The notes beneath the pieces were generated by a model, which made no database searches, was not told where the DNA came from, and saw only the letters and a program-made list of their open reading frames with translations. Source: a virus. From it: a stretch of DNA of 62,857 nucleotides. The stretch covers positions 1 to 62,857 of IMG/VR virus record IMGVR_UViG_3300010293_000004; one strand, written 5' to 3'. A program made the position numbers and the translations under genes. Below, in pieces: positions 35,423-49,775 of the stretch (its first letter is position 1; each line of letters opens with the position of its first letter).

Positions 35423-35965
35423 ATGGCAGTTAACGGAAAGAGCAAAGGCTCCACTTTCGAAAGAAAGATCGCCAATCTTCTTTCCGCACGATTTAAAGAA
35501 GTAACCGGAATCAACCAAGCTTTTCGTAGAAACCCCGATTCCGGTTCATTTTTCGGTGGCTCTAATAAAAAACGAGTTGCAACCCACGATTTAGATCACG
35601 CTTTTTTTGGTGATTTAATTTGCCCTGATTCCTTTAACTTCTCAGTGGAATGTAAGCACTATAAGTCAGGGCCTACGTTCTCAGCAATTGTTAAAGGTAA
35701 AGTAGCACAGTGGGATGAGTGGCTTGCACAAGCACAGCAGGATGCATCAAATTCTAACAAGGAGATGATGCTTATTGTTAAATACAATGGAGTAGACGAA
35801 GTAGTATTTTTGTCTAATCCAATCTCAGCATTACGACTTGTATTGCCGTACCGAGAGGTATACGGATACAGACTGGACGATTTTTTAAATTTAGATAATT
35901 CAATATTTTTTAATAATATAAACTCGAACAATGTACACCAACAGGCTTCCGCAGCTCAAGGGTAA
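35423..35965 (+). CDS. PD-(D/E)XK nuclease, Holliday-junction-resolvase-like
   Basis: 180 residues. GSTFERKIANLL puts a Glu at position 13. DHAFFGDLICPD supplies Asp 64, and FSVECKHYK gives Glu 76-x-Lys 78. Together these form the PD-(D/E)XK catalytic core in the arrangement of Hjc-like junction resolvases. T4 resolves junctions with the unrelated endonuclease VII (gp49), so this may be a functional substitute clearing branched DNA before packaging. It follows the small basic protein by 3 nt and lies downstream of gp47/gp46, consistent with recombination. A repair nuclease role is the alternative. Confidence 0.75.
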   Translation: MAVNGKSKGSTFERKIANLLSARFKEVTGINQAFRRNPDSGSFFGGSNKKRVATHDLDHAFFGDLICPDSFNFSVECKHYKSGPTFSAIVKGKVAQWDEWLAQAQQDASNSNKEMMLIVKYNGVDEVVFLSNPISALRLVLPYREVYGYRLDDFLNLDNSIFFNNINSNNVHQQASAAQG

Positions 35966-36714
35966 AGAAGCTTGTTGCATTGTTTGTTTGAACAACAATA
36001 TCCAGACACCACGTCGTAAAAATCCATAAAAATTTAGCGACACTGAAATTTTGTTTTGAAGGGGCGGCCAAACCGTCACTAGTTCGCAAGTAGGTACCAG
36101 TGCAATACCGCGTGTACGAGAAAGACCGGACACGAAGACGAAAGCAACACCTAACAAAATTCATTTGGCCTTGTTTGATCGAGGATGCTCGATCCCCATT
36201 GAGATTGCCTGAAAGATGGCTGTCGGATACTTGGGTGCCAGGGGGAAGACACTAACCTAAGGTGTTAAACGACGATGGCTCTGAGAAAAAGCAACCATCA
36301 TCAATAGCAGACAACGACTTGCTAACCTGCTATTGATCCGTCATATCGAACGATCGTACAGTAATGTACACACAAAGATCAAATAAGACAAAATCGAGGT
36401 ATTGGGAGTACAGGATGACCGCTTCCGCTATATGAAAAGCATATAGCTGCCTTAGCAAGTACGTAAGAAACACTCACAGAAGATATCTCGTATTTTGCCT
36501 GGTTTACGGGCAAAATACGACTTGCATCTACAGAAAGATATCTCTTCTTTCCCCCAACAAACAAATAACAAAGTAAAAGAAATTAAATTAACTTAAAGAA
36601 AAGAAGAAAAGGATCTTAGAGCGAAGCGATAAGATAGATGTGCTGAAAGCACATCTCTGAAGAGATAAGATGAATGATAGTAATTGATGTAATGGATAAT
36701 AGCGACTGTGATGC
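35966..36714 (+). ncRNA. Putative large structured non-coding RNA
   Basis: About 750 nt without a credible gene and with many strong inverted repeats. These are 36177-36194 (7 bp, loop GATG), 36274-36299 (5 bp), 36300-36337 (11 bp perfect, 16-nt loop), 36427-36447 (8 bp), 36489-36519 (11 bp perfect), 36613-36635 (6 bp) and 36636-36656 (9 bp). A possible long-range helix pairs 36146-36152 with 36260-36266. Loops are A-rich when read on the plus strand. A purine/A-rich single-stranded stretch lies at 36545-36610. The size and density recall giant phage RNAs such as GOLLD or ROOL, but I cannot show membership. Exact ends and strand are uncertain. Confidence 0.6.
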
Positions 36715-36951
36715 TTAGAAGAAAGGCATGCCAGTTTTCTTTGCTATCTCGATGTTGTCTTTGATTATTTTATTGATGTTTTCGCGATCTGAGAAACACA
36801 AAAGCATAGCATCGTTATATGAGATTGATCCTCTCATAAACCAGCATAGCCGCATTGCGTCATCTTTTAGGGCTTTTATGTCTTTTTCGTACGAGTCTAA
36901 TAATTTGGCTATTTTCTCGTTACTAAGAGATAAAAGCCTTATGCGAAAAAA
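36715..36951 (-). CDS. -1 frame extension of gp26-like protein (frameshift product)
   Basis: 78 codons open in the -1 frame relative to the gp26-like gene, ending in TAA at 36715-36717. There is no ATG before residue about 35. The sequence reads like a real protein: SNEKIAKLLDSYEKDIKALK, then DDAMRLCWFMRGSISYNDAM and a C-terminus KKTGMPFF. This looks like short proteins encoded after the hub gene in related phages. The frame is entered exactly at the slippery heptamer (36951-36945), so the likely product is a 358-residue fusion, analogous to lambda gpG-T. Independent initiation at a non-ATG codon is the alternative. Confidence 0.75.
   Translation of the reverse strand, partial: FFRIRLLSLSNEKIAKLLDSYEKDIKALKDDAMRLCWFMRGSISYNDAMLLCFSDRENINKIIKDNIEIAKKTGMPFF
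36907..36951 (-). promoter_or_regulatory. Programmed -1 ribosomal frameshift signal
   Basis: The heptamer U UUU UUC (36951-36945) is in the correct phase. It is followed by the 6-nt spacer GCATAA, which includes the zero-frame stop, and then a hairpin (36938-36907). The hairpin has two 12-nt arms forming 10 pairs with two internal mismatches and an 8-nt loop. The site, spacing and open -1 frame together are the textbook arrangement. Confidence 0.8.
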
Positions 36952-43291: not shown

Positions 43292-43921
43292 ATGGCAAAG
43301 TATCTTAAAGAAAACCTTACATACGACTCCGCTAGAATCATTGTAGAATCTAGCGGAGACGGTAAGGACCTCCATATGAAGGGCATCTTCATTCAAGGCG
43401 GTGTTAAGAATGCTAACCAGCGTGTTTACCCTGTTAATGAAATTGCTAATGCAGTCGGTACTATTAACGAACAAATCAAAGGCGGTAATTCAGTTCTGGG
43501 CGAAGTTGATCACCCAGATGATTTAAAAATCAATTTAGATCGTGTGTCTCATGTTATTACTGAGATGTGGATGGACGGTCCAAACGGCTTTGGTAAGTTA
43601 AAGATTATCCCAACACCAATGGGCAACATCGTAAAAACAATGCTTGAAAACGGCGTTAAGTTAGGTGTTAGTTCACGTGGCAGTGGTAATGTTAATGAGA
43701 GTACTGGTCATGTTAGCGATTTTGAAATTGTAACAGTAGACATTGTTGCTCAACCAAGTGCGCCCAATGCATACCCAACAGCAATCTATGAAGGTTTGTT
43801 GAATATGCGTGGTGGACACAGAACTCTTGAAGTTGCAGCCGAAGTTGGCTCAAATCAAAAGGTTCAGAAGTATCTGAAAGAGCATGTAGTACGCTTGATC
43901 AAAGATTTAAAAATACAATAG
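43292..43921 (+). CDS. gp21: Prohead maturation protease gp21, ends in UAG
   Basis: 209 residues (T4 gp21 is 212). The active-site regions are VLGEVDHPDD (catalytic His) and GVKLGVSSRGSGNV (catalytic Ser), followed by VTVDIVAQPSAPNAY. The protease cleaves core and capsid proteins after (L/I)xE during head maturation. The stop is UAG at 43919-43921. The next codons GAG ATA GGA lead in frame into the ATG of the scaffold gene at 43931, so reading through UAG would yield one protease-scaffold polypeptide. A suppressor tRNA with anticodon CUA is encoded in this window. Confidence 0.93.
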   Translation: MAKYLKENLTYDSARIIVESSGDGKDLHMKGIFIQGGVKNANQRVYPVNEIANAVGTINEQIKGGNSVLGEVDHPDDLKINLDRVSHVITEMWMDGPNGFGKLKIIPTPMGNIVKTMLENGVKLGVSSRGSGNVNESTGHVSDFEIVTVDIVAQPSAPNAYPTAIYEGLLNMRGGHRTLEVAAEVGSNQKVQKYLKEHVVRLIKDLKIQ

Positions 43922-43930
43922 GAGATAGGA

Positions 43931-46342: not shown

Positions 46343-47101
46343 ATGAACAAATATGAAAAATGGTATAGCAACATAACCAAACGTGGGCAAGAATCACGTA
46401 ACCTAGCTTATTCAGAAGATCACCATATCCTTCCAAAAAGCTTAGGTGGTAACAACGAACCAGAAAACCTTACTACGCTAACAGCCCGTGAACACTTTAT
46501 TGCTCATTGGTTGCTTACAAAGATTTATTTTGGTAAAGAAAGATATCAACTACTTAACGCATTACAAGGAATGCGGAGAGAAAATCAAAACCAAACGCGA
46601 TACCACACTAAAATAACAGCACGAGTTTACGAGAACTTAAAAGAAGAGTGGAGTAAGTTATCTTCAGAACGAATTAAAGGGGATAAAAATCCTATGTGGG
46701 GCAAATCTCATAATGAAGAAGCAAAGCTAAAAATTAGCCAAGCAAATAAAGGTCGAGCACAACCAGAACTCGAAAAACAAAAACAAATAGCTGCACAAAA
46801 AGGTAAAAAACGAGCACCGTTCTCAGATGAATGGTTGGCTAAGATAAAAGAAGCTAGGCAAGGCGAACGTAACGGTATGTTTGGTAAACAGCATTCTGAA
46901 GATACTAAAAGAAAGCAAAGTGAAAAAGCAAAAGGCAGAAAACAATCAGCAGAAACTATAGCTAAAAAAGCTGAAGCTGTAAGAGGAAGTAAAAGAGAGA
47001 AGATCCTCTGCCCACATTGCCAACAACTAATAGCAGTAAACGTTTATCCAAGGTGGCACGGTGACAACTGTAAGATGAAAGATAGCAATGAGAACATATG
47101 A
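46343..47101 (+). CDS. HNH homing endonuclease with NUMOD3 repeats
   Basis: 252 residues. The HNH-type core is DHHILPKSLGGNNEPENLTT, with LTAREHFIAHWLLTKIYFG completing the metal site (H27/H28, N42 region, H51, H55). NUMOD3 modules follow (GDKNPMWGKSHNEEAKLKIS and GERNGMFGKQHSEDTKRKQS), then a C-terminal probable zinc finger CPHC-12-aa-RWHGDNC. It is inserted after the capsid gene, behind its terminator, and overlaps the next gene by 14 nt. The zinc finger is shared with the unrelated endonuclease at 31071. Confidence 0.9.
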   Translation: MNKYEKWYSNITKRGQESRNLAYSEDHHILPKSLGGNNEPENLTTLTAREHFIAHWLLTKIYFGKERYQLLNALQGMRRENQNQTRYHTKITARVYENLKEEWSKLSSERIKGDKNPMWGKSHNEEAKLKISQANKGRAQPELEKQKQIAAQKGKKRAPFSDEWLAKIKEARQGERNGMFGKQHSEDTKRKQSEKAKGRKQSAETIAKKAEAVRGSKREKILCPHCQQLIAVNVYPRWHGDNCKMKDSNENI

Positions 47102-47585
47102 ATTTGGCGGAATAGATGTACAAACAGAAATCCACCGCTTACATAACCGACAATCTAAATTCTTGATCACAAATGAGAGCATACAAGATGATTTTAAGTA
47201 TGTTACTAGTTTTTTAGATTCAGCAAACGGATTTACTATCGCTGAATCAGAACTGATTGTTGGAAATTACTATTTTCCGATCGACATATTGTATAGCCCA
47301 CATGAAAGAAAACTGACGTTAATCTTAGTTATTCAACCAGCAGAGTATGTTGGGGTAGCAGGTAGTCGATTAGAATTTAGATATAATGTAAGCAGTAAAT
47401 CGTTATTCTTTCCATCTGATGAATCGTTAACAGATAGCGAGCATAGATACATTTATTCTAATAGAAACGAGTTAGACCAAATAGTAAGTGTAGCTATAAT
47501 GAAATTTAGTAACACTGATTGGGACTTCCAAGCGTTCGGTTTTGATTTAACCGGTACAATTCAACGCATTACTAATCTGAGGTGA
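47088..47585 (+). CDS. Unknown beta-rich protein after capsid gene
   Basis: 165 residues, begins MRTYEFGGIDVQTEIHRLHN. The middle contains YYFPIDILYSPHERKLTLIL, and the rest alternates hydrophobic and polar residues, suggesting a beta sandwich. No motif is recognised. Its ATG lies inside the last codons of the HNH gene, so it may depend on it for translation, or it may be the gene whose start the endonuclease invaded. It ends at a bidirectional terminator facing the minus-strand operon. Confidence 0.6.
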   Translation: MRTYEFGGIDVQTEIHRLHNRQSKFLITNESIQDDFKYVTSFLDSANGFTIAESELIVGNYYFPIDILYSPHERKLTLILVIQPAEYVGVAGSRLEFRYNVSSKSLFFPSDESLTDSEHRYIYSNRNELDQIVSVAIMKFSNTDWDFQAFGFDLTGTIQRITNLR

Positions 47586-47600
47586 TTAAGACTGCATAAA

Positions 47601-47627
47601 CAAAAACCCGCACTAGGCGGGTTTTTG
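47601..47627. terminator. Bidirectional intrinsic terminator
   Basis: 11-bp perfect stem CAAAAACCCGC with its complement and a 5-nt loop, flanked by A- and T-tracts. It serves both the plus gene ending at 47585 and the minus gene ending at 47688. Confidence 0.9.
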
Positions 47628-47687
47628 CTGGGTAGTATTAACTGCATTACTTTAATGTCTTAAAGTGTTACTACTATACAGTAAAAA

Positions 47688-48068
47688 TTATTTGTTGCAA
47701 ACAGATACGGCAATCTGTTTAGCCTTTTCTTTAGCCCGGCCTTGTAACATCATCATATCGTAAGCAGTTCTTTCTAATCCTCTTAGATCCCACATTATGT
47801 AACTGTATTCCCGGTGATGTATTAAGTGGGTATTTTCGATCATTGGCCGATACTCTGTCCACGTACTACATCTCAGTTTCTCTATTACGTAGATCTTTTT
47901 CTGTAGTTTTTTAAAGTACTCTTTAGTATAACGAATTTCTCTGGTTAGTATTTTGTAAGTATGCCGCCAAGTAACCTACCACTCTTTAAACTCTTCAGGT
48001 GTGGAAAAGTTCAAAGACGTTAACATATCAACAATGTTGTTACAGTCGAACATCTTCCAAGTGCTCAT
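47688..48068 (-). CDS. Unknown protein interrupted by one in-frame UAG
   Basis: Reading from ATG 48068 gives 30 residues (MSTWKMFDCNNIVDMLTSLN, then FSTPEEFKEW), UAG at 47978-47976 as codon 31, and 95 further open codons (VTWRHTYKILTREIRYTKEY ... VSVCNK) to TAA at 47688. Coding character, rich in Lys/Glu/Tyr helices, is continuous across the UAG. The start overlaps the upstream stop as ATGA, so the gene is coupled in an operon. A CUA-anticodon tRNA lies upstream on the same strand. Readthrough would give 126 residues. A nonsense mutation (CAG or TGG to TAG) is the alternative. Function is not recognised. Confidence 0.7.
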
Positions 48069-48340
48069 TTAAACTCTCCTTTAATTAAATCAAACAGTGT
48101 GATTTTAGTTAGTTCACACCAAACATCTTCGTATACTACACAACAATCACATTCCTCATATTCATCGCCCGACCCACCCTCCATACAACACGGGCACATA
48201 GCTCGCAATAACTCGTATTGCGTTTCGTCAGTTGATGTAAACAAATACATCTTACCTTTATACTTGCACAACCCTTTCCACGTAATGTCGTAATGGTTAA
48301 TCCTCTTAGTTATTTGTATATTCTCATACCTTACTCTCAT
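48065..48340 (-). CDS. Small cysteine-rich protein
   Basis: 91 residues. Two cysteine clusters, CPCC (about 49-52) and CDCC (about 64-67), are separated by an acidic Gly-rich loop and could bind zinc. The N-terminus is beta-like (NHYDITWKGLCKYKGKMYLF). No family is recognised. The stop overlaps the start of the UAG-interrupted gene. A terminator-like hairpin lies 28 nt before its ATG, and an AGTAAATA-type motif lies further upstream. Confidence 0.65.
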   Translation of the reverse strand: MRVRYENIQITKRINHYDITWKGLCKYKGKMYLFTSTDETQYELLRAMCPCCMEGGSGDEYEECDCCVVYEDVWCELTKITLFDLIKGEFK

Positions 48341-48367: not shown

Positions 48368-48403
48368 CCAGAGCGTAAGGTGATCAACCCTAAGAGGCTC
48401 TGG
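48368..48403 (-). terminator. Terminator or attenuator hairpin before Cys-rich gene
   Basis: On the minus strand CCAGAGC pairs with GCTCTGG, with partial inner pairing, followed directly by TTTTCTTTT. It lies between the zinc-ribbon gene and the Cys-rich gene, 28 nt before the latter's ATG. Confidence 0.55.
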
Positions 48404-48485: not shown

Positions 48486-49337
48486 TTAAAGAACCTTCAA
48501 AATCGGTCTTGAAGTATTGTCACCAAAAATGTTTAAAGAAGTGCCACACTCTGCACAAAACTTTGCAGTTGCTTTGTTTTGCTTGCCGCAGGTAGTGCAC
48601 TGAGGTTTAGTTTTTACAGTTACTGGCTTCTGGATTGGCTTATTATCGGGTGTTTCCCCTAACAATTTTAGCACAATAACATGTCTTTCCTCTTCAACTG
48701 GGAACCAGCTTGCAGTTTGGAATTTCTGATTGCTTTCGCTGCCAGGGACTGTGATACCGGTTTCGTTAGCTGGTGTATTAAACCCTTTAGTAGAAGCACT
48801 AGTAGCACCAATGCTCATACTTTGTGCAGAAACAGCGTTTGCACTATAAGATGCACTGCATATTATGGTTCCAGGCGGCCATGCAGGAGCATCGCCAGTA
48901 TTTCCACTACGAAGCGGTGAACCATACCACCCAGGTGGGTAAGCATTAAACCCAGGGTTCTTCCATTCCCAGTCTGTTGTTGGTTTGTAAAAAGATTTTT
49001 CGAATTGGAATTCGACTCGGACAAGACCGTCTTCTAACTTAATTCCACGATGCTTTTCGATATTGCCTGTTCTCGTGATGAACTTAAACTTGTTGCCCTT
49101 GTTCATGTCTGACACAAACCGCTCTAAGTCGATTTCTTGTTTGCTATTTACAACTAACCCACCCGGAATAACATCTTGCCCGTCGATTGTAATATACGCA
49201 ATCATACGGACTGTATGCAGATTTTTTACTAAAATGGAATATTCACTACCGAAGTTGAGGTAGACCTGATCTCCGAACTCACGGAGCACTTTGCCATTAG
49301 ATTTGATAGCGATGGCACACTTTGATTGATACATCAT
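48486..49337 (-). CDS. Phage protein with C-terminal double-CxxC zinc ribbon
   Basis: 283 residues. The N-terminal beta domain (CAIAIKSNGKVLREFGDQVY, then SEYSILVKNLHTVRMIAYIT) is a pattern I have seen in large-phage proteins of unknown role. A Pro/Gly/Ser-rich linker covers residues about 130-205. The C-terminus has CTTCGKQNKATAKFCAECG, a zinc ribbon of the DZANK/zf type. It is cytoplasmic, probably binding nucleic acid or protein. A long structured leader and a suppressor tRNA lie upstream on the same strand. Confidence 0.7.
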   Translation of the reverse strand: MMYQSKCAIAIKSNGKVLREFGDQVYLNFGSEYSILVKNLHTVRMIAYITIDGQDVIPGGLVVNSKQEIDLERFVSDMNKGNKFKFITRTGNIEKHRGIKLEDGLVRVEFQFEKSFYKPTTDWEWKNPGFNAYPPGWYGSPLRSGNTGDAPAWPPGTIICSASYSANAVSAQSMSIGATSASTKGFNTPANETGITVPGSESNQKFQTASWFPVEEERHVIVLKLLGETPDNKPIQKPVTVKTKPQCTTCGKQNKATAKFCAECGTSLNIFGDNTSRPILKVL

Positions 49338-49701: not shown

Positions 49702-49775
49702 TGGTGCTCCTAGTCTGATTCGAACAGACGAACATCTTTTTAGAGAAGACTACTTTTCCGCTAAGTTATAGGAGC
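49702..49775 (-). tRNA. Amber suppressor tRNA, anticodon CUA
   Basis: A complete 74-nt cloverleaf on the minus strand. The acceptor is GCTCCTA/TAGGAGC, with discriminator A and encoded CCA. D-arm ACTT/AAGT has GG in the loop. The anticodon stem is GTCTT/AAGAT (one G-U pair) with loop CTCTAAA, so positions 34-36 are CUA. The variable loop is 4 nt. T-arm GTCTG/CAGAC has the loop TTCGAAT. Conserved U8, A14, G18G19, A21 and U33 are present. It should read UAG. The amino acid is unknown; the AGCGG D-loop resembles glutamine tRNAs, but that is weak evidence. Confidence 0.88.

What the first reader, a model, noticed from the sequence alone, without database searches (positions are those of the whole stretch)
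47688..48068. Gene fully open except one in-frame UAG, 1.7 kb from the suppressor tRNA
From ATG 48068 (coupled to the upstream stop by ATGA) I read 30 codons, UAG at 47978-47976, then 95 more sense codons to TAA at 47688. Protein character is continuous across the UAG (EFKEW-X-VTWRHTYK). A frame of 95 codons without a stop in this AT-rich DNA is unlikely by chance. With a CUA tRNA in the same genome, this is the best candidate for a gene that needs UAG decoding, making its product conditional on tRNA supply.
Basis: partly seen in the sequence, partly recalled or inferred. Interest (0 to 1): 0.85.

Follow-up and report, generated by a model that had tools for sequence, protein, structure and literature searches.

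The report
Phage gene interrupted by one UAG
A giant bacterial virus carries a small gene of unknown function that is intact except for one UAG stop signal, close to a real tRNA that can read UAG; the gene frame looks genuine, but nothing shows that the virus needs or controls this readthrough, and the more durable finding is that the UAG-reading tRNA belongs to a conserved two-gene unit found in dozens of related giant viruses.

Summary
On the minus strand, 48068-47688 reads 30 codons, UAG (47978-47976), 95 codons, TAA. The start has a strong Shine-Dalgarno site and overlaps the upstream stop, and a terminator follows. The open frame after the UAG is unlikely by chance (0.0003-0.002), and frame statistics favour coding on both sides, so it is probably one gene, at least until recently.

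The protein is an ORFan: no homologue in about 51,000 phages, IMG/VR, plasmids or 85,000 bacterial genomes, so the residue at codon 31 cannot be checked. The phage uses UAG as an ordinary stop. In about 1.3 Mb of relatives with the same tRNA, no other credible UAG-interrupted gene exists, while genes broken by UAA or UGA occur without any matching suppressor. A nonsense mutation, tolerated or not, explains the data as well as controlled decoding.

The tRNA is real. It sits upstream of a zinc-ribbon gene (48486-49337), a pair recurring in 53 of 80 IMG/VR loci (35 distinct tRNA sequences). All keep anticodon CUA, and 28 of 35 have an unpaired 31-39 position, against 8 of 236 other phage tRNAs. 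That lineage-wide standard-code suppressor has no known target.

The parts
47688..48068 (-). 126-codon ORFan frame with one in-frame UAG (30 codons, UAG, 95 codons, TAA)
   Evidence: no homologues
47976..47978 (-). in-frame UAG (codon 31), context GAG TGG UAG GUU ACU
48076..48080 (-). Shine-Dalgarno AGGAG, 7 nt before ATG 48068
   Evidence: sequence
48065..48340 (-). upstream 91-aa Cys-rich ORFan; its TGA overlaps the ATG of the UAG gene (ATGA)
47596..47634 (-). terminator hairpin (13 pairs, -18.6 kcal/mol, z -5.9) after the UAG gene, shared with the convergent gene 47088-47585
48368..48403 (-). hairpin followed by a U-rich tract between the zinc-ribbon gene and the 91-aa gene (-15 kcal/mol, z -2.7), possible terminator separating the two pairs
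48486..49337 (-). zinc-ribbon (ZnR) protein, 283 aa: conserved N-terminal beta domain, variable linker, C-terminal CxxC...CxxC zinc ribbon (PF13240)
49702..49775 (-). tRNA with anticodon CUA, complete cloverleaf, encoded CCA, A73
   Evidence: (RF00005, 57.4 bits)
43919..43921 (+). UAG used as genuine terminal stop of the prohead protease; same position carries UAG, UAA or UGA in 77 relatives

Best explanation
A real, small, non-conserved phage gene (126 codons) has a single UAG at codon 31, in a standard-code jumbo phage that also makes a functional-looking amber suppressor tRNA. When that tRNA is present, some ribosomes should read the UAG as an amino acid (which one is unknown) and make the 126-aa protein, while the rest stop and release a 30-aa peptide. 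The UAG most likely arose as a nonsense change in a dispensable gene and is tolerated, wholly or partly, because of the suppressor. It is not the conserved reason why this lineage keeps the tRNA. Shown: the frame, the start, the terminator, the tRNA and its conservation, and UAG as a normal stop elsewhere in the phage. Inferred: charging of the tRNA, suppression at this codon, and function of the product.
For: Frame, start and chance tests. Intact CUA tRNA in the same cassette, strand and 1.6 kb upstream. 35 distinct family members with 551 of 595 checked stem pairs formed and an invariant CUA anticodon, so the tRNA is under selection as a tRNA. UAG is used as a real stop by other genes, so this is not a recoded genome. 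The AlphaFold model of the read-through protein has one helix, residues 24-68, running through codon 31 (weak, only one of five models is confident).
Against: No homologue exists to show the residue at codon 31. No proteomic or ribosome data. No other credible UAG-interrupted gene was found in about 1.3 Mb of CUA-tRNA phage contigs. Genes stopped by UAA or UGA occur at similar low rates with no suppressor present. There is no enrichment of backup stops after UAG in CUA-tRNA phages, so general suppression is either weak or absent.
Confidence: 0.48

Rival explanations
1. Plain pseudogene or sequence error: the UAG is a recent nonsense mutation, or a wrong base in a metagenome assembly, and no functional full-length product is made.
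For: Stop-interrupted genes of the UAA and UGA kind occur in relatives without matching suppressors. L129 shows how a one-base indel in an assembly can mimic a UAG-interrupted gene. The gene is an ORFan in a variable island beside a homing endonuclease.
Against: Only one lesion in 126 codons; no frameshift; start, coupling and terminator are intact.
Confidence: 0.3
2. Dedicated regulation: the UAG is a programmed lock, and the full-length protein is made only when the phage tRNA accumulates, as proposed for recoded phages.
For: tRNA and UAG gene lie in the same minus-strand cassette; UAG is followed by G, a context favourable to suppression (general knowledge).
Against: The gene is absent from every other fetched phage that keeps the tRNA. 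No other UAG-locked gene in those phages. A terminator-like hairpin separates the tRNA-ZnR pair from the UAG gene.
Confidence: 0.14
3. The true product is a 30-aa peptide ending at the UAG, and the open frame after it is chance.
For: Strong start site; low codon-usage score of the 95 codons. A gene-free stretch elsewhere in the window (35913-36251, minus) also has 113 open codons after a UAG without looking like a gene.
Against: Probability 0.0003-0.002; the downstream frame is preferred even with stops ignored; it ends 54 nt before a strong terminator.
Confidence: 0.08

Closest known systems
Xanthomonas phage XacN1 suppressor tRNAs (PMC5852040)
   Same: Standard-code jumbo myovirus with CUA tRNAs and a homologue of the zinc-ribbon protein (38% identity).
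   Different: XacN1 authors read through all amber stops and found no target gene. Its CUA tRNAs lie in the terminal-repeat tRNA array, not beside the zinc-ribbon gene. No relative of the UAG gene there.
Genetic code 15 phages (UAG=Gln), e.g. Lak megaphages and some crAss-like phages
   Same: CUA tRNA and in-frame UAG; Lak-B5 carries a distant zinc-ribbon homologue, itself with an in-frame UAG.
   Different: Here UAG is a normal stop in structural genes and only one gene is interrupted.
tRNAs with 4-bp anticodon stems (PMC13092985)
   Same: 28 of 35 family members have an unpaired base pair at the end of the anticodon stem.
   Different: The pair lost here is the lower one (31-39). Published readthrough tests concern the top pair (27-43). 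The window's own tRNA has a full stem.
Jumbo phage RsoM2USA and siphophage Summit suppressor tRNAs (PMC8504454, PMC9022506)
   Same: Lone CUA tRNA in RsoM2USA, and a predicted suppressor tRNA in Summit, with no demonstrated target.
   Different: No UAG-interrupted gene was identified there.

Membership tests
Gene decoded by UAG readthrough | Both sides of the stop are coding in one frame | tested here: met
   (statistical, not comparative)
Gene decoded by UAG readthrough | Homologues carry a sense codon at the stop, or conserve the stop with the downstream part | tested here: inconclusive
   No homologue found
Gene decoded by UAG readthrough | Full-length product detected | not testable with these tools
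   needs mass spectrometry or ribosome profiling
Amber suppressor tRNA | Anticodon CUA with complete cloverleaf and CCA | tested here: met
Amber suppressor tRNA | Conserved as a CUA tRNA across relatives | tested here: met
   53 of 80 ZnR loci; 35 distinct sequences, all CUA
Amber suppressor tRNA | Aminoacylated and active on UAG | not testable with these tools
   Charging enzyme not predictable; nearest-tRNA comparison gave no consistent isotype
Genetic code 15 phage (UAG=Gln) | Many genes with in-frame UAG | tested here: not met
   One credible frame in the window; none in about 1.3 Mb of relatives
Genetic code 15 phage (UAG=Gln) | UAG not used as terminal stop | tested here: not met
   4 of 44 window genes; 126 genes in five relatives end in UAG
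Pyrrolysine tRNA (ARAGORN's label) | 6-bp anticodon stem, one base between acceptor and D stem, tiny D loop | tested here: not met
   5-bp anticodon stem, two linker bases, ordinary D loop; matches RF00005 over its whole length
CUA tRNA-zinc-ribbon cassette of jumbo phages (described here) | CUA tRNA upstream of, and on the same strand as, the ZnR gene | tested here: met
   gap 364 nt in the window; 52 of 53 CUA loci have this order, median gap 542 nt

The most novel reading that the evidence does not exclude
A lineage of standard-code jumbo phages carries a dedicated amber-suppressor tRNA, paired with a zinc-ribbon protein and usually given an unpaired 31-39 position, kept across tens of lineages without recoding the genome. 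It would provide conditional low-level UAG decoding, of fast-changing accessory phage genes such as 47688-48068, of host genes, or both.
Probability: 0.25. Interest if true: 0.8.

Novelty: new variant of a known kind. Interest (0 to 1): 0.5.

Why it matters
Suppressor tRNAs are reported again and again in phages that use the standard code, and authors state that no target gene could be found (PMC5852040, PMC9022506). This window offers one concrete, testable UAG-interrupted gene. More usefully, it leads to a conserved tRNA-CUA plus zinc-ribbon unit, with a recurrent anticodon-stem defect of a kind linked to stop-codon readthrough (tested so far for the other end of the stem). That makes the open question of what these tRNAs do approachable by genetics in a few model jumbo phages.

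Tried and rejected
(1) Homologues of the 126-aa, 95-aa and 91-aa proteins in IMG/VR, INPHARED phages, PLSDB plasmids, GTDB genomes, 28 related records, Pfam and PHROGs: none. (2) Near-identical contigs with another codon at the UAG (pattern AAAGAGTGGNNNGTTACTTGG): none. (3) Genome-wide recoding: rejected. (4) Conserved readthrough site in the other CUA loci, aligning stop to stop: nothing convincing. (5) The prohead-protease UAG, which is in frame with the next gene, as a suppression target: rejected. The in-frame arrangement also occurs with UAA; UAG is common because TAGGAG doubles as the next gene's ribosome site; and it is seen in phages with no CUA tRNA nearby. (6) L129 as a second UAG-interrupted gene: rejected, because relatives carry the second part as a +1 overlapping gene with its own signal peptide, so L129 has a one-base indel. 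(7) Backup stops after UAG in CUA-tRNA phages: no enrichment. (8) Rfam hits near the tRNA other than the tRNA itself: none reaching its gathering score. (9) Structure searches for the 126-aa and ZnR models: no match with E below 0.001. (10) Charging identity by similarity to other phage tRNAs: no consistent answer.

Full report
What is there. The minus strand from 48068 to 47688 reads 30 codons, UAG at 47978-47976, 95 codons and TAA. The ATG overlaps the stop of a 91-aa frame (ATGA) and is preceded by AGGAG. The TAA is followed 54 nt later by a 13-pair hairpin with a U tail. A tRNA with anticodon CUA lies 1.6 kb upstream on the same strand. The window is a linear IMG/VR virus record of 62,857 bases, a fragment of a T4-like jumbo phage: its portal protein is nearest to those of phages with 280-490 kb genomes.

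Is the frame more than chance? With local base composition, 95 codons stay open in one given frame with probability 0.0003-0.00055 (up to 0.0019 using the gene's own second-order composition). Among 1,889 UAGs in non-gene frames of the window, nine are followed by 95 or more open codons, and only this one overlaps no other gene. A three-periodic model trained on small genes of relatives, with in-frame stops removed from scoring, prefers this frame for the 30 codons before the UAG, the 95 after it, and each half of the 95. The margin, 7.7 nats, is within the range of true small genes (17th percentile) but is also reached by 17% of 35 spurious open frames, so this adds only modest weight. Codon usage is poor, but no worse than in the neighbouring 91-aa gene. 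I conclude that this is, or recently was, one gene of 126 codons (about 0.9).

Homologues. None was found by profile, peptide-pattern or tblastn searches in IMG/VR, INPHARED, PLSDB, GTDB genomes, 28 related records, PHROGs or Pfam. The 91-aa neighbour is an ORFan too. The residue at codon 31 therefore cannot be compared. A single-sequence AlphaFold model is a helical hairpin whose first long helix passes through codon 31, but only one of five models is confident and no viral structure matches with E below 0.001.

Does this phage use UAG as a stop? Yes. Four of 44 complete genes in the first gene list end in UAG. The prohead protease stop at 43919-43921 is a clear case: in 77 relatives the gene ends at the same place with UAG (44), UAA (26) or UGA (7).

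The tRNA and its real context. The gene just downstream of the tRNA encodes a 283-aa protein with a C-terminal zinc ribbon and a conserved N-terminal beta-rich domain. Its homologues brought in 80 IMG/VR loci. A CUA tRNA is present in 53 of them, and in 52 of those it is upstream of, and on the same strand as, the zinc-ribbon gene, at a median gap of 542 nt. By contrast, only 2 of 80 loci fetched through the capsid protein have one. In the five long contigs that were fetched nearly whole, one CUA tRNA was seen in each and no UCA or UUA tRNA in any. The 35 distinct CUA tRNAs share the anticodon, encoded CCA, a G1-C72, C2-G71, G3-C70 acceptor (34, 34 and 33 of 35) and mostly A73, while the rest of the sequence varies with pairing kept (551 of 595 checked stem pairs). 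The family is therefore maintained as a tRNA. In 28 of 35 the lowest anticodon-stem pair (31-39) is C.A, A.C or C.C, against 8 of 236 other tRNAs of the same loci with an unpaired 31-39. A published study reports that tRNAs with a four-pair anticodon stem raise stop-codon readthrough, tested for the top pair (PMC13092985). The window's own tRNA has a full stem.

Does the tRNA have UAG targets? Several tests were made. (a) Homologues spanning an in-frame stop in real genes: in 1.02 Mb of CUA loci UAG 1 (a poor, TTG-started frame), UGA 2, UAA 11; in 1.35 Mb of other loci UAG 4, UGA 3, UAA 16, with the known code-15 phage Lak-B5 detected as positive control. (b) Long frames interrupted by one stop with no start soon after it: in CUA loci the UAG cases are this window, L129 and two tRNA-array artefacts; in other loci only Lak-B5. 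L129 is explained by an indel in an overlapping gene pair. (c) The same test over five CUA-tRNA contigs (about 1.3 Mb): the only UAG case outside the window is in a tRNA array; one UGA case interrupts a release-factor-like gene. (d) Backup stops are not enriched after UAG in CUA phages. UAG is thus neither reassigned nor visibly avoided, and this window's gene is a lone case. The XacN1 authors also read through all its amber stops and found no target (PMC5852040).

Mechanism. The most economical reading is a dispensable ORFan that acquired a UAG and is read through in part when the phage's suppressor tRNA is present. The steps shown are the frame, its signals, the tRNA and its conservation. 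Charging, decoding at this codon and function of the product are inferred. A dedicated on/off switch is possible but has no comparative support: other phages with the tRNA lack the gene, and a terminator-like hairpin separates the tRNA-zinc-ribbon pair from the 91-aa/UAG pair. A dead gene or a wrong base in the assembly cannot be excluded.

Verdict. Observation confirmed; interpretation partly supported. The lasting result is the conserved CUA tRNA plus zinc-ribbon unit with its unusual anticodon stem, in phages that keep UAG as a stop.

Noticed in passing
window 36945-36951 (-), gene 37790-36939: Probable programmed -1 frameshift at T TTT TTC, just before the stop of a 283-aa gene; the 76-aa extension in the -1 frame (RIRLLSLSNEKIAKLL...TGMPFF) is conserved in 26 related loci with the same overlap.
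   Followed up: partly
L101:8196-8583 and L121 near 9600: IscU-like genes with an insert directly after the Gly codon of the active-site motif APACG-D: L101 reads GGT TAG CTG GGC GAT, L121 reads GGT TAG GA GAT. L101 resembles a very short T4 gene 60-type bypass (take-off GGU, UAG, landing GGC); other phages read ACGDVMKLQ without insert.
   Followed up: partly
35 CUA tRNAs, e.g. L131:8163-8237, L150:9385-9458: Conserved non-pairing at 31-39 of the anticodon stem in 28 of 35 CUA tRNAs against 8 of 236 other phage tRNAs.
   Followed up: partly
L195:11210-11884 (-): Phage RF1/PrfH-like release factor gene (motif GGHRIQRVPPTE) interrupted by an in-frame UGA after codon 35 (GGT TGA ACT), in a phage that carries the CUA tRNA.
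   Followed up: no
window 43919-43930: The protease UAG is in frame with the start of the scaffold-like gene (TAG GAA ATT GGA ATG), so readthrough would fuse protease and scaffold; in-frame adjacency occurs in 29 of 77 relatives with UAG or UAA.
   Followed up: yes
L129:16887-17594, L130, L165, L163: Lipoprotein gene overlapped in +1 frame by a second gene with its own signal peptide, an Rz/Rz1-like arrangement (resemblance only, not tested); L129 carries a one-base difference that mimics a UAG-interrupted fusion.
   Followed up: yes
window 35966-36700: About 0.7 kb without a convincing gene, with a perfect hairpin (CGTATTTTGCC...GGCAAAATACG) and several long open frames without start signals; may encode an RNA, no Rfam match.
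   Followed up: no
window 46343-47101 (+): HNH/NUMOD3 homing endonuclease directly after the major capsid gene, marking the variable island that holds the cassette; similar endonucleases follow the capsid gene in several relatives.
   Followed up: no
L068:10904: Single in-frame UAA in a major capsid protein gene otherwise intact and 99% identical to L065; probably a sequence error, showing the error background of such contigs.
   Followed up: no
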